Of a stretch of 64,000 nt of DNA, positions 31,119 to 62,665 are shown one piece after another. A model generated the notes under the pieces. It was not told the DNA's origin, searched no databases, and was given only the letters and a program-made list of their open reading frames with translations. Each line of letters begins with the position of its first letter. The stretch's first letter is position 1. Both the position numbers and the translations under genes were made by a program. The stretch lies in contig LSAX01000004.1 in assembly GCA_001557505.1 (NCBI GenBank), positions 558,001-622,000 of the forward strand, written 5' to 3'. The stretch is from Reticulascus tulasneorum. Its lineage: Eukaryota > Ascomycota > Sordariomycetes > Glomerellales > Reticulascaceae.

Positions 31119-32006
31119 TTCAACTTGAGAGAGATCCTGCTGAGATTTCACAATTTATACTGCCAATAATTAAGATGGACGAGCAGGAACGTTGGCGGTC
31201 ACCAAATTGATTGGTGGCAGGTACGAGAAGTGGAGATTCCTCTGTCCCGACCACTTCATGCAAAGCTGGGTAGCCCTTACAGCAATCGCAAGCATCAGTA
31301 TCTTCCAAGGTTCTTTGAGTAACCGAAGTCTACAATATGCACAATCGCGGCTAATTGGCGCACTCGCCGCCGCTTGCATGTGCCTAGTATCAGTGGGCAA
31401 TGTCTCGCGGTCGAGGACTCCGTGCCCTCGAGTCTTCCGCGTCGCAGACTTAGGAAAGATCCATGTTCAGAAGCACACGAATACCTGCTTCCATTCTAGG
31501 CAGTAGGACTGTTCCATCAGCAGACAAAGCAGGGCTTTCTTCGGTGCAAACTGTCGCGAAGATGGGATCGACGGCGGGGGCGGACATGGTGCCAAGGCGC
31601 GGGTGCAATGGTATGTTGCATCGGATCCGGTTCGTCGTATCCTGTTGTGAGGGACTCCGCTCGAGATCCTTTCCATACGTTGCTTGGATCGGAGCTTTCG
31701 GAGTAATGCAAATGCAACTAACCAGTGAGTGGCAGGCGGCCAAGGGTGGCTGTCGAGACTGAAAGGATGGATGAGTCGAGCGAAGGATCTCGGGCTGTGA
31801 TCCGACGTTCCCAAAGTCGAGTTCTCTGCATTATGATACTAGGGTACTAGTATTAGATTGCAGTACTCTTACTGGTTGGTATGTATAGAGCTGCCAGTCA
31901 TATTTCAACAGATCATTAAGGGGCCACGTTTATTTCTTTGAGTAGTTATATAAGCATAACATCAGGATTCTTCCATAAAAATGCGGGTGAAGCATCGGTG
32001 GACGTA
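31119..32006. other. intergenic, between F-box-like gene and Tc1 element
   Basis: Nearly 0.9 kb of normal base composition, then a shift to AT-rich DNA at about 31.8 kb. No gene accepted. Confidence 0.5.
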
Positions 32007-32016
32007 AAAACAAAGG

Positions 32017-32036
32017 TCAAAAGTCTAGTTACACCC
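32017..32036 (+). repeat. left terminal inverted repeat (core)
   Basis: Twenty bases that match the right end in inverse orientation with one mismatch (A versus G at the 11th base), a transition consistent with RIP. Confidence 0.85.
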
Positions 32037-32151
32037 CCACCCACACCAATATCTACTATTATAACCCCTTTTAAAGACAAGTTAATATCTTTGCCAACTT
32101 AAGTCGTATATAATAATATTATATATCATTATAAAGCTAAAAGCTTAATAG

Positions 32152-33210
32152 TCAATACTTTATATACCAACCGCAGGCTAAGCGTATAACTTGAAAACGG
32201 CACGTGATTGATTTTATAAACCTCGTTATTAGGTCTTAGCTAATAATATCCTACGTAATAACTATTCTTCTAGCTAACTCTGCCCTACCGGCTATAGAAT
32301 CAGGTATATCGTCAATATTAGGCCATAAGCTATATAATATACTCTTTAAAGCTTTCTAAGTATGCTTAATAAGGTTTAAATCAGGGCTATAAATAAGCCA
32401 ATCGATAACCTAAATCCCGTATAATTCTAACCACTCTTTTATTACTTATAACATATGAATTCTAGCGTTATCTTGTTGAAATGGTGTCCCCGGCTCGTAT
32501 ATAGATAAGAGTCCCTCCTCGAGAGCCTATATATACGATCGTAACAAGTATCTATTACGCGGAAAGTCCTTATCCCGCTATATAACGATAAAAGGACTCT
32601 TTAAGTACTACTAGATTATTACCCACACCATGATCGAGATCCTTTTACCGTAACCACTTTAGTTAACAAATCAAGGCTTATATTACTACCAAGAATATCA
32701 AAAAACCTAAACTTGACGCTCGTTTAGATTACTTTAGATAAAGTATTCGTCGGTAAAAGTAGCCTAAACTAATTTATACTCTCTACCTCTCTAGAAACAG
32801 GCAAATTAGCGTCTTTCCTATATAATCTCTTCTATAAGAATAATCCTCTTCTTAGAGATCTATTTTCATATCCCTAGCTTACGTAACTCGCGCTATATCG
32901 TACTCCAGGATACCTCAAATGAGCTCTAAGAAACTAAAGCTCGGTATGATATCTTTAGAAATTACTTAATAATTTATAATATAGATCAAATCTCCCGATC
33001 TAACAGTTTCTTTAGATGTCCTTTTCGAGGCCGTAAGGCGTTATTATGAATATCAGCGCGTCGTTGAAGTATATGATATACTGTGGGTCTTAAGATCTAG
33101 AACGCCCTCGCGACAACAGCCTTACTTTGACCTGCTATAATAACAGATTCAATAGCCGCACGCGTTTCTAGATTTAATTCTTGATTCCGTCTACGATTTC
33201 CACTTATTTC
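32152..33210 (-). pseudogene. Tc1-family DD34E transposase remnant
   Basis: Reading the minus strand through many stops gives an ordered transposase: a helix-turn-helix-like LNLETRAAIESVIIAGQSKAV, then LRKLGI, FTDE (first catalytic Asp), MVW, and GTPFQQDNARIH (second Asp, codon at about 32470-32472). DWLIYSPDLNLIKH comes last, and GWYIKY precedes a TGA at 32152-32154. Thirty-four residues separate the second Asp from the position of the third acidic residue, the DD34E spacing of Tc1 proper. That Glu reads as Lys (G to A), and several Trp or Gln codons read as stops, so the enzyme is dead. The upper boundary is approximate. Confidence 0.88.
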
Positions 33211-34093: not shown

Positions 34094-37000
34094 TTACTCC
34101 CGCAAATGTCTACGGAGTATTTCCGCAGCCGCGCAACTGGTCGCGTATTTTCCTTCCGAAGCTCGCTGCAAAGGAGACATGCCTAGATTATCCCGGATAT
34201 GAGCATCCGCTCCAAGACGGAGCAGGACGTGGACTACGGTACAGTAACCTTGGGCTGCAGCAAAATATAACGGGGTCCGGCCAAGATGGTCACGTTCGTC
34301 CAGCTTTGCTCCTAATGCGACCATTCTTTCTATTGGTCCGTATATACCGGCATCGGCCGCAACATGCAAAGCAGTTAGTCCAGTCATCGTCTTGGCCGAA
34401 GGGTCCCCTCCGAGTTCCAGTAGCTTATCACATAGGTCGATTCTCCATTTACTACCGCGGGTGGGGGTGGTGAGTGGTTTCCAGAAGTCGGAGATCAACG
34501 TTTCTGAGGTACAGAGAGCAAATGCAATGTGAAGCACTGTTCGACCCTGTTCGTCCTTTTCGTTTATATCTGCGCCATGCGTTGTGCACAATCTTGCAAG
34601 TGGCCAGTTTTCAGCGATAACTGCTTTGTGTAACAGTGTCCAGCCATGTGTATCTCTGCGTTTAGTATCAAGGCGGGCACCAGCAGATGCGAGTGCGTCG
34701 ATGTCCTTAACTACCTGGCTATTGGACCAGGAATCGTCATAGACTTCAAACATAATGTCCATTGGGGTGCGATCCTTTGCGTCTTTGGCATGAACATTAG
34801 CACCGTTGACAATTAGCTCCGTAACCAGGCATCTCCTCCGAGCCCTTTGAATGCTGTGGTGTAGCGGCGTGAGGCCCTCATGATCCTTTGCGTTGATGTC
34901 TGCACCAGCGCCTAGGATATCCTGAATGAGTTTGCCATGGCCATGGTAGTTGACAAGATAGTGGAGTGGCGTCCAGCCAAAGTGACTCTTGGCGTTTGTA
35001 TCTGCACCCGCGACTATTAGCTCCGTGAGCAGGGCGATAATCTCGCTCGCATCTTTGCTTTTGTGCCATTGCCTAGCATCGTCGTCATAAGTTCCCGCAA
35101 TTAGATGTAATGGAGTGCGACCATAATCATCCACCGCATTTACGTCAGCCCCGGAGGATACCAGGTGCTCAAGAATGCTGGAGCTAGCTTCCGAGTTTAT
35201 TGTAGGTATGCGGTGGAGTGCTGTCAGGCCTCGTCGATCCTTTTCATTTATATCTGCGCCATGGCCAACAAGCAGTTCCAGTGCTGAAGCAATAGAAGAC
35301 TGCGATTCAAACTGCATCATATCCATAGCTTGAAGGGGGAACCTCACGCCGAACTTGAGCAGGTCAGACGCAAAGGACACATCGCCGCATTGCAGAGCAT
35401 CTTTTAGTAAAATCCCGTACCCTGGCAGCACCGCGCTCAATGCCTGTTCATTTGTCCTGCTTCCGTCTTGCATCTGTTCCATGGCGGCGAGGAAGGCCTG
35501 CCGAGTTTTACAGTTCTTCAATGCCTCCACTAGGCGCTTCTCCAGGCCGGCCTTTGCACCATGTGCTGCCAGAATTGTAATCACCTTTGCCCGGCGACGG
35601 CGGATGGCAAGAGAGAGAGCATCGTTCATTTCTTTCACGATAACCTCTCTGGACTTGCATTCCACTATACACTGCACCCAGGTGTCCAAACTCTGTTCTA
35701 CCGCCAAAGAGAGCAACGAACTGGTCCGCGTGATGTTGTCTTGCAATATCAGCCACCGCTCCCAGTAACATCCATCATAGAGAAGGAGAATGATCGGCAT
35801 TGGGTTTGCTCCGCCATCTTGGGCCAATCGAGCATGAAGAAAGGTCCTATTGATAGCATATGACTCCAGAGCCGGGTATACATCGAGTACTTGGGACTTG
35901 ATTGACATCGAACCTAGGTCAGTCGCTTCAGATCTCCCAGAATTTGTAGCAAGTGTGGTGGCACTTTTGATGTTTTGCAAGAGAAGAGACATAGGATTTC
36001 CGCTGTGGCTGCCAGCCGATGACCCGAAACTGGCCGTGTCTAGAGACGAAGCTCTGCGATAGGTCAGGTCAAGGCTTGGGACTTTCGATTTGGATTTCGG
36101 TCTTGGGCTCTGTTCCTCGTTATAGCCCCGCTTCGTGTCCTGTTCTTCGTTATAGCCTCGCTTCGTGTGTCTCAGGCGTGATTCGTAGTATTTCTGGAGT
36201 TCGTCAATGGCGAGATACTGGAAGCAACAGCGCATAATGACAATGTGTCCCTCGGCGGAAAACGAGGCAGTGTCCTGCCTTGGGTACTCTGCAGCCTTCA
36301 ACGCCTCGGACAACCACTCCCCGCCACTCAAAAAGAATGCACGCACGGATTCGTGAATTGGCTGTACAATTCTGCTGTCTCCAGACGCACTGTCGAGCGA
36401 GCCTGCTCCAGCACCAACGGAACCCACACCATCCCCATCTGAAAAGGCAGCAGATATGGGGTGTACTTTGACTTCGACTAGACCCCGCGAGATGGCCCTG
36501 ATCTGCCTTTCTAGTTGCTCATCCGTCTGAGTGCAGTAGGTGGAATTTTTCCACTCCGCAAGCGATTTCGGCGGGTCGTCTCGAATGAAGGCGAGAATAT
36601 GATGCCACTCTCGAAGCCGCAACGCGCTCGTAGATAGAATTGTCCACTGAAACAGCCGCAGAGTTACACGCAACTCTGATTTTGACATCTTGTGTAGATC
36701 TAGTAGCTTGGTGAAGAGGCTGTCGAGCTGAACTGGCAAGTGACGAATCTGTTCGAGGAGGTACCGTTCGTTCCGCCCGTTGTCTCTCTCTTTAACGATT
36801 TCGTCAATGACCAGAACAACCCAGAGGAAAATTCCGTTCGCCTTGTCAGCGATTTCGCAACGCATTTCCTGCGCAGCATCGCTACCACCAAACCCTGCGA
36901 TATCTAGCTGCCTCGAGATGTAGTGCTTGATGTCACTTTGAGTAAACCTCTCTATTTTGATTGTAGGGCAGTCTTTGAGAAAAACGGTTGGAAAATCTCT

Positions 37001-38842
37001 CCTGGCCAAGCAAACATCGAGCTGCACACCGACGTTGTACGCCGAGTCCGTGAGTTGGCGGAAAAAATAAGCTATGTCTCGGTTCCCTGGCTCGTCGCAT
37101 TCGTCGATGGCGTCCACAAATATTATCGTTCTGAATTTGTTGGTCTCGTCAAGAAACACGTCTCGGAATATTTGTTGCAGGCTAGAGAGATGCAAGTCCG
37201 AGTTGCGGGCGTCATCCTCTTCGTATAGGCTCATTAGCGCCGCAAGCTTTAAGGGATGAAGTTCCAGAATCTGGTAGAGCAACGAGCGGAACATCCCCAA
37301 TGACGTGTGCTCCAACGAGTTGCCGCGCTTATTGAAAAAGAAACCAGCAACACAGGTTGAAGTCCCAGCGGCGCTCGAAAGAACTTGCTCGTAGGTCTTT
37401 TTCATGATTGTTGACTTGCCCGACCCCGGATTCCCGGTCACTTGCAGCAACCCATGATGCTCATCAAGTTTGGACCGAGAGATCCAATTTGCGTACAATT
37501 CCACCTGAGGTAGCCACATGCAAGTATTGTCGAGTGGGTGGCTGATTGTCTTCAAGCGGTTTTGCATGCCCGGAAAGCGAAGAATTCGCGCGGCATTCGG
37601 CACAGTCTTAATGAAATTCGTGTAATCAAACTTGGTTGTGTGAATACCAGAGACCAAAGCTTCGAGCTGAGAGTAGATCCTCACAAGCTCGCCTGACACC
37701 TTTCTATAATTTGGGCAATTGGCACTGCTGAATCGACACATTGCTCTGTGATCGGCATGCAGAGTCTCTGCCCGCTCACGTGGATCTCCAAGACAGGACG
37801 AGAAATCAGGAACAACCTATGACTGTCAGTCGTCGTAACCCCGCCGTTGCCAGGATACCGTGTGCCTTGCCTTTTCTCGTACAGCAGGAAAAGGCAGACC
37901 AATAGTCGTAAGCGCCAGTCCTTCTTGGAATGACTTAACCTGAAAGTCATGCTTGGCCCAAAGTGATGAAAACACGTCTTGACAGCGGGAGAGATCGGCA
38001 TTCTTGAGTGCCAGACTATCAAGGACGCTGGAGTTCGTATCTAGCAAGAGCAGGCTGGCAGCCTTTCTTGCGATTGTTCCGAGAGATGCCATTGAACTTC
38101 CTCTATGTGGTGTGCCCAGAAACACGACAGCAGAAGTCGAGTTTAGTATATCTTGAAGTTCACCGGAATTGGAGGTCGAGCAGCTGGCAAGTATCTGCTC
38201 AAGTGAAATGAGCTACGTTAGCCATGCTACGAAATATCAATAGATAGGGTGCTCCATTCCACAAACCTCTTTGACTAGGATGCCCCCTAACGAATGGGCG
38301 ACGAAGATGGTTCTGCGACCCGGAGGACGCGTGCGTGCGAGTTCATTCATGAGATCCTTGCTATGTGTGAAAATGCTGTTTTGGTTCGTCCCTCCGCTAG
38401 ACTGTAACTTGGCGACCACAGTGTCATACCCCAAAACGATAACTCTAGCCTTGGGACATTTGATTGGAAGAAGATCTCGCGGCCAAAAGACAGGACCACG
38501 TTGCGTTGTGCCTGTGGCTTTGCGGCGTATAAGCCTTGGGATAATACCCGAAAGACTCCGCCTTTTCTTCGGTGGCTCTGACTGGCTGATTTGACTAGAA
38601 GAACTCGATATCTCTGCTTTCGTCGTCTCTTTTGCTGTAGATTCTCCATCGATCTTCGCGTCACAAGTCCAGGTGCGGAAGGGATTGCCCTGCAATCCAT
38701 GGACAAAGACGATACTAGCGGATTGTTAGCAGGGGCGATCTTGGTGCACACAATGAGGCGCTTCGCACTCAACAACTGGCTCAACTCTCTTTGGCTCGTA
38801 GACTATCGATGCTCCCGTATCAAATACCCCAGTACTCGCCAT
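34094..38842 (-). CDS. NLR-type protein: SesB-like hydrolase, NACHT, ankyrin repeats
   Basis: Four exons: 38842-38769, 38714-38267, 38194-37883 and 37816-34094. Introns of 54, 72 and 66 nt have GT-AG ends and all phases fit, giving about 1518 residues. The third donor has a weaker alternative (GTATCC). The N-terminus is an alpha/beta hydrolase of the SesB type: IVFVHGLQGNPFRTW after residue 25 and the nucleophile elbow VAHSLGGILVK with Ser about 166, then VVFLGTPHRGS. The NACHT NTPase has a P-loop GNPGSGKST at about 406-414 and Walker B IIFVDAIDE at about 509-516. About nine ankyrin repeats (GADINAKDHEGLTPLHH type) fill the last 400 residues. Fungal NLRs of this plan are non-self sensors: ankyrins bind a ligand, NACHT oligomerises and the hydrolase is the effector. 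It looks intact. Confidence 0.9.
36114..36170 (-). repeat. short in-frame tandem duplication in the NLR gene
   Basis: The segment TKRGYNEEQD/S is present twice in direct succession, about 30 bases per unit, in the linker between the NACHT region and the ankyrin repeats. Length change here would keep the frame. Confidence 0.8.
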
Positions 38843-46754: not shown

Positions 46755-49700
46755 TCACAACTTTTCTCTATTATCACACCCAGTGAGGTAGTCGATACTG
46801 ATAAAACACCCGGTGCCGAGATTCTTACTCCCGCACTTACTACAGCCGCTGTCGCGAATATCCTGATAAGCCCACCACATCGTGTTGCCGCTGAAGATAC
46901 ATTCAGCTGGTCCTTGAACGTAGACATGGCACCCATCGCCGTTAATGTTAGAAAAGCAGTTGCCCCGGAGTGGCTTCCCGCTCCTATTACATAATGTGTT
47001 AGTTGCGGCTGAGTAACAGGGAGGGGTGGAGATACGTACCCGGACGCGCCGTAGTTCAAGTCATTGTTGCGTATCAAGCTGTTGACGGCGTGGTCGCAGT
47101 ACTTGACCTGCAGGGTCCTGCAAAGAGCCGAGCCTTTGCAGTCGTAGCTGATGACGGGTGCTGGTGGAGTTGGTGGATCCTCCGGTGGATCCGGTTCAGT
47201 TGGCGGATCCGGAGCCTTCGTCGAAACCACCGGCCGGGATGTTGACACTGTTGAAATCGATGTCCTTATGGTGGTGAGCGACCGCGAGGCGGTTGAGCTG
47301 ACTGGGTCGTCGTCTTCGTCCTCTTCGCTTCCCGGGGGCACGGTTCCGCAAGCATAGAGCATGCCGTTGTCGGCAAGACAGCCAACCCCTGAACCGTTGA
47401 TGCCGCCTTGGCCCACGCTACCTCCGCTGTTGGACCCGGCGCCAGACTGGCCCGAGACGGTGTTGCCGTTGCTATCAGGAGTGTCGATGAGCGGTGCATC
47501 GGCGTTCATGACGCCGGTGCAGGCATACTCTTCCTCTTCCTCCTCTTCTTCTTCGTCCTCATCCTCGTCTTCTTCCTCTTCCCCACCCTCCGTCCCGCAT
47601 GCTGCCCCTACGCAAGCGCCAGGTGGGCAGTTGGCCGGACCGCAGTCGCCACCCTTCGTACATTGCGGCCCAATGCAGTCGCCTCCCTTTGTGCATTGGG
47701 GGCCGATGCAAGGTCCTCCATGGTGGCATATTGGCCCAATACAGTCTCCTCCGATACTGCAGAACGGCCCTTTGCAGCCGCCGCCTCGGTGGCATCTCGA
47801 TCCCTTGCACCGTCCACCCTTGTGACAGCTTGGCCCAGTGCAGTCCCCTCCACGGTCACAGTCATCGCTGTCACAGTCATTCCCGTCACAGTCAACTCCG
47901 CTGCAGTCGTTTGTGTCATCGCATCCGTCGCCTTCGCAATCCTCATCGTCTTCTTCGTCGCCGCCTGGAGGTGGCCCCGGAGCTGGTCCGTCAAGGATTA
48001 CAACCGGAGGGTGCTCGATCTTGCCTCCGCAGAACAGGAAACAGGGAGAGTCTTTGGGAGACGGAATAGGGAGTGGGATAGGGGGAAAACTCGCGGTGTG
48101 GCCCCCACACGCGTCTCCACAGGCCCATGGGGGTACAATGATGGCTGTCTGATTCGTTGTCGGCGTCACAAGGATGATGCCGCCAGTCTGTGTTACTCCG
48201 CCTCCAGGCGCTGTTCCAGTTGGTGGTGGTGTGATGGTCGTCGGCTTCCCGTCTGAGCCAGTTGTCGTGATTGGTGTTCCTGGCATCTGTCCGATCGTGA
48301 CGCGATTCCATGTGAGAGTGGCATTCTTGAGGGCTGGGGGTGTGATCGTATAGAGGACTCCATCCCATTCCGTGACGGTGGCTGGAGGCTGGAGCTGGGG
48401 GAATTGAAGAGTGGGAAACTCAATTACACAAGGTGTTGGGCAGGCGGCGGTTATGGTTCCGAAGCCTGTCCCGGTTTCCGTGGCAGCGTATTCCCAGATT
48501 GTGCTTTTCAAGGTGATCGTCTGACCCGTTTCGTTGCTCCCATCATCGTCACCGCCATCAGCATCACCTAACCAGGCGTTGATCGACGAAACGTTGCTCT
48601 TCGGGTCTTGCCAGGTTACACCCGAGACGTTCGCCCCGGGGGAGGTTATCATGTTCACAGTTCCAACCGTGGCGAGATTGTAGATGTAAATGTCCTGATC
48701 GTTAGACTGTGCAAATTTCAACAGTCAGCATCTGTAGTCTCAAGATCAAGGTGTACCAGCTAGAGAGATCTCGACCTGCTACTTTTGAAATGGCAGGCAA
48801 ACATGCGGGGAAACAACAGGCACGAGTAACTTACCAAATACAACATATCATCTTGACAGCTGAAAGTCAGGAGGCAGGACTGGTCGTAGTTCTGGAACCA
48901 GCTGTACAGCCCAGCGGCGTAGACCAAAACATTTCTGGATCGCTGGATCCGTACACCCCACGCCATGCAAGAGCTCCTGGATCCTGGATCACAGTTCAAA
49001 AACGTTGGATCTGACTTGAAGAGGCCGATCGCGTTTTGAAATGGTTCGGGGGCAGGTGGAGTCGTTTGAAAGTAGGGAGATTCGGTTTGAATCAATCCCA
49101 TAAATAGGTTGTTGGCTCCAGTAACCTCGTATTGGTAAAGCACGTTGTGCTCCGAACCGGTTCCGTAGAGCCACGTAGGGTTGGTTGATTCAATTAGGAA
49201 ACCTCTTGCCGCGTAGATGTCAATCTGCGTTCCTTCGTTTGTCTCCAAATCATGGTCGGCCACCCATCCCCAGACATTCTCAAAGTAGCCGGATCCGAAC
49301 GGAGTGATGTGAAACTGCAACGAAGCCGCAATGCATTTCGGGTTCACCTTCCCCGTCATCTTGGGACAGTCCTTGGCGAGGAGATCCGAGCCAGCATTTC
49401 CGCCGACGCGGAAGTGGCAATCCCACATGCCCGCACTGCCGGGACGGGACGCCTTGATGTTCCACTCCACCAGCACGGCACCAGCAGTCCCACCTTGGAC
49501 TGCGAACAGAAGGTCTGACATTTCAACTGAGCCAACATCACCCTTTTTGCCGACTTGGAGCATGACGTGCGGCGCATTCATGTCGCTGAATTTGGCACCG
49601 GAAGCTACAATGGAGCTCCAGGCCTCGCCCACTATTGTAATGCCGGGAACAATAAGGATAGTGTCGGTCACTCTGTAGACTCCCGCCGGGAGGAAAACGT

Positions 49701-52700
49701 AGCCGGGACTACCGAAGAGTTGCCTGAGACACGCTGTGTCATCGGCCACTCCGTCTCCTTTGCAAGAAGGCAAAGCGCTCTTGAATGAGCTCGCAGGGAC
49801 ATTCTCGTACTGAGGCTTTGGAATGTCAAGATAGCCGTCGTTAGGGCCACCCAAGAGGACTGCAGGCCGTACTCGAAGAGGCTTGGGGGTCTCTCCGTTG
49901 ACTCGCGATCCGCCAGGTGCATCCTGCGAAGCTACGACACCTTGCATCCAGGACTCGATCTTAGGCCCCCCAGCTATTAGGACCTTGCCCTTTGTGTCCT
50001 TCACGGCAGTACCAGACCCACCAAAGTCGACGTTATCAAGCGTTAGTTGGGCAGAGCCTTCGGAGGAGTTGAACGGATTGGTTCGGATGCCAGTTCCAGC
50101 GCTGATCTTACTGTCAAGCAAAAGGTACGCAAATGTCTGTTGGGCAGCGCCGACGAGGTCTGGGTTGATGAGATCTATGCCAATGGTTGCGCCTCCAATA
50201 TTGATGTTTTGCCAAAGGAAGCTCCAGTCCCAAATTGACTGAATAGCCGTCTCCGAGCCGATGAAGTTCAGATCCTTAATAGTGAACTGCTGGCTGCCAG
50301 CTCGCATTCCAATGTAGCCTCCATGGAACGTCAATCCGGTCATCATGCCTCCGCTGCCATTCTCCATGTATATTCCAACATGCTTTGACCCTGGACCATC
50401 ACTGATATAAAAGTCGATGTTTTGCAGGGAGGTTGCCTGCGCAACTTGCCAATGAAGACACGCCGGACCCGGAGACGGCGTATTGGGCGGGTTGTTTGGA
50501 GTGTTCCGAATATCGATAATGAAGTTGCGAAGCTGGCGGAAGAAGTTACTCTGGTTGATATACCATTGCGCGCCGCTTCCTCCGGGGATGTAGTAATCTG
50601 AGCTCAAGACACCCAAGCCCTGGAAAGACGGAGCGGCTATCAGTCGTGGTCGATTATGGGGATCACCAACCATAATGGTTTGGAAGTACATCTCGATTGG
50701 GGAGCTGATGAGATAGTTCCCCGAGGGAAAGTACACCACCAGCGGCATGATGGATGTCGAACCGCAGTCGCCACCACCACACCGCTTCTGATTGGAAATA
50801 CACTTCTGGATTGCCACAGTGTCGTCAGTTCCACCATTACCCGTAGCTCCACAGTCCGTCTTGACGTTGAGGAACACTTTGTATCCCGCTATTGGGTTGA
50901 AAGGGCTCTTGCCGTGCGCAACCTCGGTATACCAGTATGACGCGCTCTGGCGCTTGGCCGTAGCATTGACCGCGGTATCATCTGTGTCCCACGTATACGC
51001 CATTCGATTGTGCGAGGCGTCAAACTCGGCAACCAGCGCAGCAGCCTCACGAATAGTATCGTTGATGGGGATGTAGTCGTTCTTGGTTGGCAAAGGGACC
51101 GATTTGTCAAAAGTATAGTATCTTGCCTGGCTCCTGACTTTCCGGGGGTCTTCAATCCGTGCATGCGCAAATCTGCGAGCGTTGGATTCCAAGTTCTCGG
51201 TCGAGTACTCTTTGAGAATGTCCTTTGCCTCGACAACCTCCGCAGCGGTGACATCTCTGCCCCTGAGCCGGTATGTACCGGTCGGGATTGGCTCAGTGTT
51301 ATCCCGTTTATTCAGCCTCCACTTTTCATTCTTGGGCATTCTAGCCACAGGCACGGCTGGCCCAGATGTTTCGGTTGGTAAGACAAGCTTCTTGACTGGA
51401 GTTCGCTTGGAAACGTCTGCAAATCCGGGGACACCTCGTTCGTGTTCCAAGCCCAGGTTGGTTGGGGCGGATCGCTTTGAATAAACGCGTGTTGATCCGG
51501 TGTGGTCAATAACCCACGCTCGCGACGTATGGGGTGCTTGATCTATGTTGGCGGTTGATAAGTAGAATACTGCGACGTATTGGTCATTCTTTTGACCCTC
51601 GCCTGGCTTGGCACCAGGGATTTCATGCGCAGCTCTAAGGATATCCTAACGGTATGTTAGTGCCGTGAAATCGGAACACCGAGGTGCTAGAAAGTCATGA
51701 ACATAAAAAAACATACCTTTAGAGGACTCAGGGAATGTCCCTGCCAGTCCTGTTCACTAGGGTTCGTGTCGGGAATACCACCCATTGCCTTGATGATTTT
51801 GGCGGCTAGTAAATCGGGAATATCCTGTCTCGTCTTTGGATCTTTCTTCGTACCTTTTGCCGCGCAAAGTGCGTTTTGCGGTGCGCAAATGACCTCCGAA
51901 TCGATCCCGGAATACTTCCCAGTGGGTTTACCAGTTTTCCCTAGAACTTTAAGTCCTCGACCACCCTCAACCCAGCTATATCATGTCAGCTTCAAACAGT
52001 ATCATAGGAGGTCTATTTCAGCTAGCATGGGACTTACGACGCGGACGGGAACTCGTCACAGGTGTAGATTAAGCCGCTCGCATCTGTCTGCTGCCCCTGG
52101 CCGTCGACTGGTCCTAGAACGAGCTGGGCATCATTCGGGTGACTTTGAGCTGGAAGTCTTTCAAACACGTTGCTTCGGATTGTGCTGATACCTGTATCCG
52201 TTGAGACGCTTTTGCATTTTCCGGGAAATCCAGCCTTTTTGTAGAGACTCGTAGCTGCCGAACATGTGCCCGCTCTTCGTTCCCTATTCGTCGGGCGGCC
52301 GTCTATTTTGTCAACCAGATCGGCGTGAAGCTTAGCTTTGCCGTTGGTAAAAGTGATCTCGCCACGTTTGACAAAGTTTGCGACGTTCTTGCATATGAAT
52401 GGCATATATGCGCAGTTATACACGAGTGTAGGTATCGTTCTCCCAGCGACGGTAGAAGACTCCTTGACTGTCGCGGTAACTCCATTGTTCACGACTTCCC
52501 TATCCCAGTGGAATGTTCCACTGGGAGGATCCGACTTGACAGTATAAGACTCAGCAACTGCATCGCCTTTGGGATACCATACTGTTTTTGTAGGGCTTTC
52601 AGTTTTGACGAGCTGGTTGTACTGCCCTTGAACGGAGACAATGAGAGAGAAAAGAAGTGCGAAGAAGTAGTAGCGACGGGGCGAACACAAGATTGGAGTC

Positions 52701-52702
52701 AT
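46755..52702 (-). CDS. giant secreted fusion: NucA/NucB-type nuclease, GH55 glucanase, Cys array, KP4-like tail
   Basis: Five exons: 52702-52038, 51975-51717, 51645-48835, 48706-47040 and 46983-46755. Introns are 62, 71, 128 and 56 nt, all GT-AG with matching phases, giving about 1876 residues. A signal peptide (YYFFALLFSLIVSVQG) is followed by a NucA/NucB-type nuclease at about 100-300; CDEFPSASWVEGG spans the first intron and EQDWQGHSL follows. Next is a linker with several Lys-Arg pairs, then a GH55 exo-beta-1,3-glucanase at about 545-1290 with two beta-helices, each opening with the DDT motif (GGTDDTVAIQKC; GDGVADDTACL). Next come a proline part, about 20 cysteines spaced every 5-6 residues and a poly-Glu run. 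The tail (about 1740-1876) is cysteine-rich and resembles KP4 killer toxins. The glucanase is certain, the nuclease likely, and the KP4 call tentative. The frames alone look like three genes; splicing shows one. Confidence 0.85.
47527..47582 (-). repeat. coding poly-Glu/Asp microsatellite
   Basis: A CTTCCTC-type imperfect repeat on the plus strand encodes a run of more than fifteen acidic residues in the fusion protein, placed between the cysteine array and the C-terminal domain. Confidence 0.85.
47630..47935 (-). repeat. tandem cysteine repeats inside the fusion gene
   Basis: Units of 11 residues (33 bases) with the form C-x4-C-x5, mostly GGDCIGPQC-TK. At least five near-regular units occur, and a more divergent Asp-rich stretch with the same cysteine spacing comes before them. 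Two neighbouring units are nearly identical, so unit number may vary between strains. Confidence 0.85.
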
Positions 52703-60249: not shown

Positions 60250-62665
60250 ATGCGCACTCAATACAGCACATGGGCGCTAGCCCTGGCTGGTCACGCAACA
60301 GCAGCGGCGGTTGACAAGAGAACAACGACTTCAGAACCCTGCGCCGTTGCCAGTCTCGCTGCCGAGGCCTACCTTACCGAGAACGAGGGAGCAAGCAGTG
60401 CGTACATTCCGCCTTCGCTGGCGCTTGACTGCCTGCTGTCGATACCGGTCGACGTGGAGCGGGATCTAGAGTTGCTGGATTACCTCGAGCCATACATCGA
60501 GTGGCAGAGTACCATCGAGGGTCTCGCCGACCCACCCGAGGGTTACCTGATTCCAGGCGTGGATATTTTTGCTGGATTTGATCAGATTCGTGCGAACCTG
60601 AAAAACGGCGAGTACGAGAGCCAGGCCATGTTTGCCTCTGATCTCAAATACATCGTCAGTTCGCCCACTTCCTCTTTCTCTTGCTCTGCAACCGCAAACA
60701 TCAGCTAATATCTTGCCGTAGTTCATCCAAGCCGCCGATGGCCATTTCGCATACTCGCCAGCTATTTTCAACGTATTCAGCTTCACTGCAACCTCCGGCG
60801 TTTTATCGGTATCCGTGGATGGCGTCGAGCTGCCCAAGGTGTACGACCAGGTGGACTTGCTCAAGGGTCGTCTGGAGGGCCGGAAGCCTTCCGAGATCGA
60901 AACAATCAACGGCCGACCCGTTGTCGAATATCTTGGCATACTGGCCGCTCGGTCTTCTTCTCAGGACCCGGATGCGAAGTACAACAGCCTGTTCGCCAAC
61001 GTCCCATATGCGATCACCGGCGCCGGGGACTTTTACATTGGAGGACGATTTCCCGGCACGCGGGACAATGAGACGATAGTGTTTGCGAACGGGACCATTC
61101 TCGAAGTCGCCAATTGGGCGGTGATCTCTTCATCAGACCTACCTGGCCTCGAATCTGCCGCCATCTTCCATGAGGCCTTTGAAGTGCCCACCACCACCGT
61201 GCCTGTTGACTTCGCCTCTGCTTCGGCTGAAGAAGAAGAGCCGACCGAAACTGAGACCTCCACGCCGGCCCCGCCCAAGAACGAGCCGATACGCGGGTAC
61301 CCCCCACCCGTGGAAAAGCACTTTCACGACTGGGTCGCAGGATACTACATCAACGAGACTGGCTACGAAGACACTGCTGTGCTAGCTATTTTGTCCTTTT
61401 CTCCCTACGATATTCCCTCGTCCCAGATCGATGGGCTTGAGGAGCTCCTTGAGGCTCAGCGTGCGGTCCGTGACTTCCTTGTCGCCGCCAAAAAAGACGG
61501 CAAGACTAAGCTCATCATTGACGTCAGCTCTAATGGTGGCGGTTTCATTTTCGCTGGTTTCGACTTCTACCGTCAGCTCTTTCCCAAGGCTGACATCTGG
61601 GATGCCAACCGCATTCGCGCCACCGAGACTCTCGATGCTCTCGGTGACTCGGCTTGGGACACGGCTCTCTTCCAGGATTACATTGGAACGGAGTTCGACA
61701 GAGACGGCAATGAGTGGAAGAACTGGGACGAGCTCTACGGTCCCGAAGTCGTGGAGGGCCAAAATACTACTCATCTCCTGCGGTACGACTTCTTCGACGA
61801 GGATGTAGACCAGGGCTTCTGGATTACTGGGTTCGACCCCAAGAACCCGCCCGCGTTCGACGAACCCCCGTTCGCACCAGAGGATATCATTGTTGTAACC
61901 GATGGTGTCTGTGCTTCCACCTGCACCATCTTCACTGGTCTTCTCGCCCGCGAGCAGGGCGTCCGCACCATCGCACTCGGCGGCCGTCCCCTCGAGGCCC
62001 CAATGCAAGCCATCGGCGGCGTCAAAGGTGCGCAGGTCCTCAACTATGACGAGCTGCGCATGATAGTCAAGAAGGCCATCGAGGATGCGATCGAGGATGG
62101 CAACACGGATCGTCTGGACAGGGCAATCGCCTCCCTCCCGTCCCTTCGTGAGCCCCCTCTCTTGCCACTACTGGAATCAGCCGGAGCCTACAACTACCGC
62201 AACGCCTACTCGCGTGACAATCCCGATGGTCACCCGTTGCAGTTCATCTACGAAGCAAGCAACTGCCGCTTGTTCTATACCTCGGAGATGATCACCAGCG
62301 TCGAGGCTGTATGGACTCGTGTCGCCGACTCGGCCTGGAATGGCGCTAAGTGCGTGCATGGCTCAACCGTCAATGAAGACGACACTATCGGCGAGAAGGC
62401 CGTGGGATACGACGAGTCGGTCCTGAGCGACGTGCCGGCCTACTATGGGCCCGGCAGCTTGGACTACCAAGGCGAAAGCGAGGAATCGAGCAAACGGACG
62501 CGGCTGGCCAAGCGAGAGACGCTAGAGGAGAAACTGAAGGATGGGAGCGATATTGTTTACAAGCCGCGCCCGCGCATTGCTAGCACTCCTCTTGAGGAGA
62601 TATTGGAGTCTGCAGAGGCACCGGAGTACAAGCCGAGACCACGGATTGGCCAGGTTATTTCGTGA
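60250..62665 (+). CDS. secreted S41-family (CPAF-like) peptidase
   Basis: Exons 60250-60654 and 60722-62665, with a 67-nt GTCAGT...CGTAG intron; 782 residues. The ATG at 60250 begins a signal peptide (TWALALAGHATAAA) followed by VDKR, a likely Kex2 site. The peptidase core lies in the C-terminal half: LIIDVSSNGGGFIFAGFDFY is the strand before the active site, and TDGVCASTCTIFTGLLA carries the presumed nucleophile Ser534 between two cysteines. GVRTIALGGRP follows. The middle is rich in threonine, glutamate and proline. The end of the protein repeats YKPRPRI twice. Fungal members resemble the chlamydial protease CPAF by fold; their substrates are unknown. All expected blocks are present. Confidence 0.9.

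What the first reader, a model, noticed from the sequence alone, without database searches (positions are those of the whole stretch)
46755..52702. One secreted protein fusing a NucA/NucB-type nuclease, a GH55 beta-1,3-glucanase, a cysteine array and a KP4-like domain
Three apparent frames join into one five-exon gene with every intron phase matching. The order is secretion signal, nuclease, wall-degrading enzyme, cysteine repeats, acidic spacer, small cysteine-rich toxin-like domain. This resembles the logic of bacterial polymorphic toxins: a part that breaches the target's wall and carried effector parts. I know of no described fungal system with this architecture. It stands next to a HET gene.
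Basis: partly seen in the sequence, partly recalled or inferred. Interest (0 to 1): 0.88.

Follow-up and report, generated by a model that had tools for sequence, protein, structure and literature searches.

The report
Fungal glucanase carrying a nuclease-like domain
One secreted fungal protein joins a DNA-cutting-like domain, an enzyme that digests fungal cell walls and a small cysteine-rich domain; most of that design turns out to be shared by many moulds, where it may serve to attack other fungi.

Summary
Window 52702-46755 (minus strand) is an intact five-exon gene model, 1876 aa, with four GT-AG introns in matching phases. Parts: signal-peptide-like start, divergent NucA/NucB (ComI)-like domain, GH55 beta-1,3-glucanase, cysteine array, acidic spacer, C-terminal domain. 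That last domain is MU117 (PF15474, 2.7e-21), not KP4 (PF09044 only 0.053). The front of the architecture is no oddity: a search gave 49 proteins (query included) with the N-domain, 48 with GH55 and one with a GH18 chitinase. PF14040 matches weakly in all 49; the acidic D-E dyad is kept in 50 of 51 aligned sequences. A kexin-type KR/RR precedes GH55 in 41 of 44 (7.1 expected). Long relatives end in a different tail (38 of 39); this gene carries MU117 instead. So nuclease-like domain plus wall hydrolase is a widespread family for which my paper searches found no description; the window copy is a variant. Killer-toxin-like antagonism is the favoured, unproven reading; nuclease activity is untested and two NucB active-site residues are not kept. 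The HET neighbour is uninformative (at least 150 HET matches in the genome).

The parts
46755..52702 (-). whole gene, five exons, 1876 aa
   Evidence: splice sites and phases
52038..52702 (-). exon 1: hydrophobic signal-peptide-like start and first part of the nuclease-like domain, up to CDEFPSA
51976..52037 (-). intron 1 (phase 2), position shared with the C12 and C16 paralogs
51717..51975 (-). exon 2: WVEGG ... SEQDWQ part of the nuclease-like domain
51481..52438 (-). NucA/NucB (ComI)-like domain, residues 89-363 (exons 1-3)
   Evidence: family HMM built here 1.5e-42, the window being one of its 51 rows; PF14040 0.019, sub-threshold
52046..52060 (-). CDEFP motif; D-E matches NucB Asp93-Glu94
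51741..51755 (-). EQDWQ motif at a helix start, about where NucB has DNRG (Asn117)
   Evidence: correspondence is my reading
48835..51645 (-). exon 3: end of nuclease-like domain, linker, GH55
50950..50955 (-). Lys-Arg (kexin-type) site just before GH55
   Evidence: KR/RR at this place in 41 of 44 proteins, 7.1 expected
48838..50943 (-). GH55 beta-1,3-glucanase module
   Evidence: 5m5z 3.7e-170, 3eqn 1.8e-149; PF12708 7.9e-78
49069..49089 (-). QTESPYF motif with the putative catalytic Glu (role recalled, not tested)
47040..48706 (-). exon 4: stretch after GH55, proline/threonine-rich part, cysteine array, acidic spacer, start of MU117
47594..47941 (-). cysteine array, in its second half an 11-residue unit of the GGxCxGPxCxx type
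   Evidence: 33-nt direct repeat; similar array in the C12 paralog
47525..47593 (-). Glu/Asp-rich spacer
46776..47146 (-). MU117 domain (PF15474), residues 1766-1870, split by intron 4 (47039-46984)
   Evidence: 2.7e-21 over columns 1-105; halves found separately in the genome
46755..46983 (-). exon 5: most of MU117 and the stop
   Evidence: PF15474 6.9e-12 alone

Best explanation
This is a secreted, kexin-processed wall-lysing protein used against other fungi. SHOWN: one intact gene model; a hydrophobic start that reads as a signal peptide (no predictor run); a divergent ComI/NucB-like domain; a dibasic site before GH55; a GH55 module; and, in place of the tail usual in its relatives, a cysteine array, acidic spacer and MU117. 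INFERRED: kexin separates the nuclease-like chain from the glucanase chain, much as zymocin has separate wall-attacking and nuclease chains. GH55 opens the beta-1,3-glucan wall of a competitor or prey hypha. The nuclease-like chain then degrades DNA, either inside the weakened cell or as DNA released from it. The cysteine array and MU117 tune binding, stability or target choice.
For: GH55 over the full module. PF14040 weak but in 25 of 25 and 24 of 24 relatives at E <= 1; among ten family members whose scores I saw, window included, nine are below the 23.8-bit cut-off and one (P0039) stands at it. Conserved D (50/51), E (51/51), a third acidic residue (50/51) and GG (51/51), fitting the ComI description of a DE dyad plus a third acidic residue (PMC3482391 passages) and NucB Asp93/Glu94 (PMC5758888 passages). 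Profile-profile score with 80 bacterial NucB proteins 30.4, against at most 21.6 in 60 column shuffles and 11.1 reversed. The model of relative P0020 shows a strand (DE)-strand-helix (EQ) order at mostly high confidence. Dibasic site before GH55 41/44, 7.1 expected. Same N-domain and tail on a GH18 chitinase with a sub-threshold chitin-binding match (P0049); group C chitinases are likened to zymocin alpha/beta and thought to open fungal walls (PMC8715425 passages). MU117 in place of the tail in the window.
Against: Two other NucB active-site residues are not kept: Asn117 seems matched by Gln, and I see no conserved His where His53 would fall (my reading). The window's own PF14040 score (15.9) is below the curated 23.8. 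The NucB profile match is short (22 columns, probability 28%), and the profile of relatives found no NucB in the PDB up to E 10. No ComJ match in the genome. The C16 paralog seems to lack the second half of the nuclease-like domain. No expression or activity data.
Confidence: 0.4

Rival explanations
1. A scavenging or autolytic enzyme: GH55 digests beta-glucan of dead or own hyphae and the nuclease-like domain digests released or extracellular DNA for food. No delivery into living cells.
For: The solved relatives are beta-1,3-glucanases; the nearest characterised nuclease, NucB, degrades biofilm DNA (PMC5758888, title and passages); the named relatives span many genera, whose lifestyles I did not test; no immunity gene would be needed, and no ComJ match was found.
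Against: A free nuclease would serve the same purpose, so the conserved fusion with a dibasic site between and the GH18 version in P0049 are left unexplained.
Confidence: 0.32
2. The N-domain is no longer a nuclease; it is a cleavable pro-domain or binding module of the glucanase.
For: Only part of the NucB active site is kept; a conserved dibasic site lies between it and GH55; PF14040 stays below its cut-off in the window protein; the C16 paralog seems to do without half of it.
Against: Its most conserved stretch is the acidic catalytic-type motif, which a pure pro-domain would not need; the N-domain also occurs on GH18 (P0049) and on a serine-rich protein with no Pfam GH match (P0002).
Confidence: 0.2
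3. A plant-directed secreted effector: MU117-containing small proteins are discussed among plant-pathogen effector candidates.
For: PMC7589765 (one passage) describes a Colletotrichum lupini gene, called a putative ToxB gene there, with both KP4 and MU117 signatures and says these domains were described among predicted Fusarium graminearum effectors; the MU117 domain is 56% identical to a Fusarium musae protein.
Against: The main enzyme is of a beta-1,3-glucanase family, beta-1,3-glucan being a polymer of fungal walls (recalled); the lifestyle of the window's organism is unknown.
Confidence: 0.06
4. Artefact: separate neighbouring genes joined by a wrong gene model.
For: No transcript data.
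Against: Splice phases, domains running within single exon frames, a conserved intron, and single-protein relatives for N-domain plus GH55.
Confidence: 0.02

Closest known systems
GH55 beta-1,3-glucanases (Chaetomium 5m5z, Phanerochaete Lam55A 3eqn)
   Same: whole catalytic module, 3.7e-170 and 1.8e-149; QTE[ST]PY motif
   Different: the solved chains (757 and 758 residues) match only the GH55 part; no nuclease-like domain, cysteine array or MU117 was aligned
NucA/NucB (ComI) nucleases, including the Tox-ComI toxin domain of bacterial polymorphic toxins (PMC3482391, PMC5758888, passages)
   Same: DE dyad, third acidic residue, EGG; weak PF14040; consistent order of secondary structure in a relative's model
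   Different: Asn117 seems matched by Gln, His53 not conserved, placed at the N-terminus, fused to a wall hydrolase, no ComJ match in the genome
Killer-toxin-like (group C) GH18 chitinases and yeast zymocin/PaT
   Same: wall hydrolase combined with a nuclease-type part; P0049 carries this N-domain and the same tail on a GH18 chitinase
   Different: GH55 here, a ComI-like domain instead of a tRNase, one chromosomal gene instead of linear-plasmid genes
MU117 (PF15474) and KP4 (PF09044)
   Same: full-length MU117 match; weak colinear KP4 match
   Different: KP4 stays far below its cut-off; I found no tested activity for MU117

Membership tests
GH55 beta-1,3-glucanase | full-length match to solved GH55 enzymes | tested here: met
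   residues 235-936 of exon 3 to 5m5z 4-708, 3.7e-170
GH55 beta-1,3-glucanase | Glu of the QTE motif (its catalytic role is recalled) | tested here: met
   QTESPYF at residue 1161; aligned Glu in 5m5z and 3eqn
NucA/NucB (PF14040, ComI) | curated PF14040 cut-off of 23.8 bits in the window protein | tested here: not met
   15.9 bits, E 0.019; relative P0039 stands at 23.8
NucA/NucB (PF14040, ComI) | DE dyad plus third acidic residue downstream | tested here: met
   D 50/51, E 51/51, E 50/51; definition from PMC3482391
NucA/NucB (PF14040, ComI) | metal ligand Asn117 (DNRG) | tested here: not met
   EQ in 51/51 at the start of the helix, Gln at the Asn position by my reading, not by a superposition
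NucA/NucB (PF14040, ComI) | beta-beta-alpha fold | tested here: inconclusive
   order of elements fits in the model of P0020; fold searches were filled by the beta-helix
NucA/NucB (PF14040, ComI) | nuclease activity | not testable with these tools
   needs purified protein
MU117 (PF15474) | curated cut-off 30.4 bits, full length | tested here: met
   76.8 bits, columns 1-105
KP4 (PF09044) | curated cut-off 27.8 bits | tested here: not met
   14.1 bits, E 0.053; the genome's one KP4 match, elsewhere, scores 115.8
Polymorphic toxin system | cognate immunity gene (ComJ type) | tested here: not met
   no PF11033 match in the genome at E <= 1; other immunity families not tested
Polymorphic toxin system | one conserved part with exchangeable other parts | tested here: inconclusive
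   GH18 in place of GH55 in 1 of 49 and MU117 in place of the tail in the window, but the tail is kept in 38 of 39 long relatives
Killer-toxin-like chitinase (zymocin alpha/beta type) | GH18 domain | tested here: not met
   GH55 instead; GH18 only in relative P0049

The most novel reading that the evidence does not exclude
A widespread, undescribed family of fungal killer proteins: a bacterial-type ComI nuclease fused to an exchangeable wall hydrolase (GH55 or GH18), matured by kexin, with an exchangeable C-terminal domain. It would be a chromosomal filamentous-fungus counterpart of zymocin and of bacterial polymorphic toxins.
Probability: 0.3. Interest if true: 0.85.

Novelty: new variant of a known kind. 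Interest (0 to 1): 0.62.

Why it matters
A set of fungal proteins now named only 'glycoside hydrolase family 55', 'pectin lyase-like' or 'hypothetical' carries an unlabelled nuclease-like domain in front, mostly with a conserved processing site between. If the domain cuts DNA, common moulds hold a chromosomal weapon or scavenging tool built like a yeast killer toxin. That is testable with one purified domain and one knockout.

Tried and rejected
KP4 membership: rejected. HET association: rejected as uninformative; 150 HET matches were scored from 347 candidates in 42.8 Mb, three of the 150 in the window. Homology of MU117 with the usual family tail: not seen (probability 0.2%). PDB sequence search with exon 1, with the MU117 region, and with the MU117 alignment: nothing relevant. 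PDB search with the profile of 44 relatives: 35 chains up to E 10, GH55 and other beta-helix proteins and a few weak ATP synthase rows, no NucB. Structure of the MU117 protein P0051: mean pLDDT 34, not used. Fold search with the P0020 model: the rows shown are GH55 and other beta-helices, so the N-domain is barely tested there. Full-length protein search: two hits, only the 7992 candidates sharing most words being scored. ComJ immunity: none. NCBIfam: nothing useful. Paper searches that gave no description of this architecture; only the open library was searched.

Full report
GENE. The window gene lies on the minus strand at 52702-46755. Candidate splice sites and branch sites were listed; the chosen introns (52037-51976, 51716-51646, 48834-48707, 47039-46984) give phases 2, 0, 0, 2 and a 1876-residue product with a single terminal stop. 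The product starts with a hydrophobic stretch that reads as a signal peptide; no predictor was run. Large parts need no splicing to be seen as fused: exon 3 lies in a 961-residue stop-free frame and exon 4 in a 659-residue one. Intron 4 divides the MU117 domain, and the genome search found its two halves as columns 1-32 and 32-105 of the same profile (the first half, 26.7 bits, is below the cut-off on its own).

PARTS. Exon by exon, Pfam finds PF12708 in exon 3 (7.9e-78) and PF15474 MU117 in exon 5 (6.9e-12), nothing in exons 1 and 2, and only a chance-level hit in exon 4. Exon 3 aligns over the full GH55 module with 5m5z and 3eqn. With exons joined, the N-terminal part gives PF14040 at E 0.019 (15.9 bits, cut-off 23.8), and the C-terminal part gives MU117 at 2.7e-21 over the whole profile with Kp4 second at 0.053. 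The Fusarium musae protein P0051, 56% identical to the window domain, also matches Kp4 weakly (0.0033). One paper passage reports both signatures in one Colletotrichum lupini gene (PMC7589765). So MU117 and KP4 may be distant relatives, but the domain is MU117; the genome's one KP4 match is elsewhere.

RELATIVES IN THE SAME GENOME. A paralog on contig C12 matches exon 1 at 41% and GH55 at 58, 71 and 67% by segment. It also has an acidic stretch and a similar cysteine array, but no MU117 or family tail was found in its frames. A paralog on C16 has the first half of the N-domain, GH55 segments and the usual family tail; the second half of its nuclease-like domain appears to be missing (my reading). 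Intron 1 has the same position and phase in all three (my reading).

RELATIVES ELSEWHERE. Searching with residues 56-275 of the Colletotrichum relative P0001 gave 49 proteins at E <= 1 including the query, from 337 candidates; 48 carry PF12708 and one (P0049, Parastagonospora nodorum) carries GH18, together with a sub-threshold chitin-binding match (22.7 bits, cut-off 27.8). Only proteins of about 890-2830 residues could be found, so stand-alone N-domains were out of reach; P0002 (Cladonia), has the N-domain on a serine-rich protein without a Pfam GH match.

IS THE N-DOMAIN A NUCLEASE? PF14040 matched 25 of 25 and 24 of 24 relatives at E <= 1, best 8.4e-5 and 6.8e-5. I saw individual scores for ten proteins: the window, P0001, P0002, P0005, P0008, P0014, P0027, P0039, P0049 and P0050. 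Nine range from 13.7 to 22.4 bits and P0039 stands at the 23.8 cut-off; the matched part is always the DE-EGG region. In an alignment of 51 (the 49, P0002 and the window), C is kept in 51, D in 50, E in 51, P in 51, the E of EGG in 50, GG in 51 and EQ in 51. In NucB the corresponding D-E is Asp93-Glu94, and replacing either, or Asn117 or the His53 equivalent, left no significant activity (PMC5758888 passages). Against activity: Asn117 seems matched by Gln, and I see no conserved His. Profile-profile comparison with 80 bacterial NucB proteins (the best 80 of 173 found) scored 30.4 over 22 columns (probability 28%, E 6.4e-4 for one comparison); 60 column-shuffled controls reached at most 21.6 and the reversed control 11.1. 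The AlphaFold model of P0020 (44 sequences, mean pLDDT 76.6) gives most ten-residue blocks from 61 to 290 above 80, three dips aside or so, with D-E on a strand, a second strand and then a helix beginning at EQ. A fold search could not test it, because the beta-helix filled the lists. My verdict is a divergent ComI/NucB-like domain, activity open.

PROCESSING. A KR or RR lies 25-75 residues before the GAxGDGxTDDT motif in 41 of 44 proteins (window included) against 7.1 expected from shuffling the same stretch; five proteins without the motif were dropped, four of other architecture were left out beforehand, and in P0013 the motif was placed wrongly. Anchored on the first GH55 tryptophan motif the count is 38 of 41 against 9.4, with eight dropped. 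A second site after the nuclease-like domain is less telling (48 of 49, 22.1 expected, one dropped). Cleavage itself is inferred.

TAIL. An HMM of the relatives' tail, built from 31 of them, matches 38 of 39 relatives longer than 1300 residues, P0049 included, some of them partly; none of the 39 matches the MU117 model, and the window does not match the tail. No relation between tail and MU117 was detectable. The cysteine array had no credible match among the proteins fetched (best E 0.49).

CONTEXT AND MECHANISM. HET genes are too numerous here to mean anything. A ComJ-type inhibitor was not found. Zhang et al. 2012 (PMC3482391, passages) list ComI nucleases as polymorphic-toxin domains that also occur in ascomycetes and basidiomycetes, name yeast killer toxins as the closest eukaryotic counterparts, and suggest that fungi may use such transferred domains in conflict; the text held contains no 'glucanase'. 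Group C chitinases are thought to open walls for antifungal molecules (PMC8715425, passages). The combination of a wall hydrolase and a nuclease-like part, with a dibasic site between, fits that logic. A food enzyme is nearly as likely.

Noticed in passing
L030:5081-6238 (own contig C15, about 16 kb past the gene, outside the window): A second, clearer NucA/NucB gene (PF14040 2e-11) with a long cysteine-rich array and a DN motif; only two PF14040 matches were found in the genome at E <= 0.001.
   Followed up: partly
window 34097-37816, minus strand: NLR-like open frame: NPHP3_N NTPase with ankyrin repeats, in a window that also holds three HET matches.
   Followed up: no
window 60722-62662, plus strand: Open frame with a CPAF-like PDZ domain and a peptidase S41 match.
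   Followed up: no
L029 (own contig C16, paralog): Paralog whose nuclease-like domain stops at intron 1 and appears to continue straight into GH55.
   Followed up: partly
L028:7100-7960 (own contig C12, paralog): The C12 paralog has a run of DQDKEGG-type repeats after its cysteine array and no recognised C-terminal domain.
   Followed up: partly
window 32001-33000: AT-rich kilobase (GC 0.336 against about 0.5 around it).
   Followed up: no
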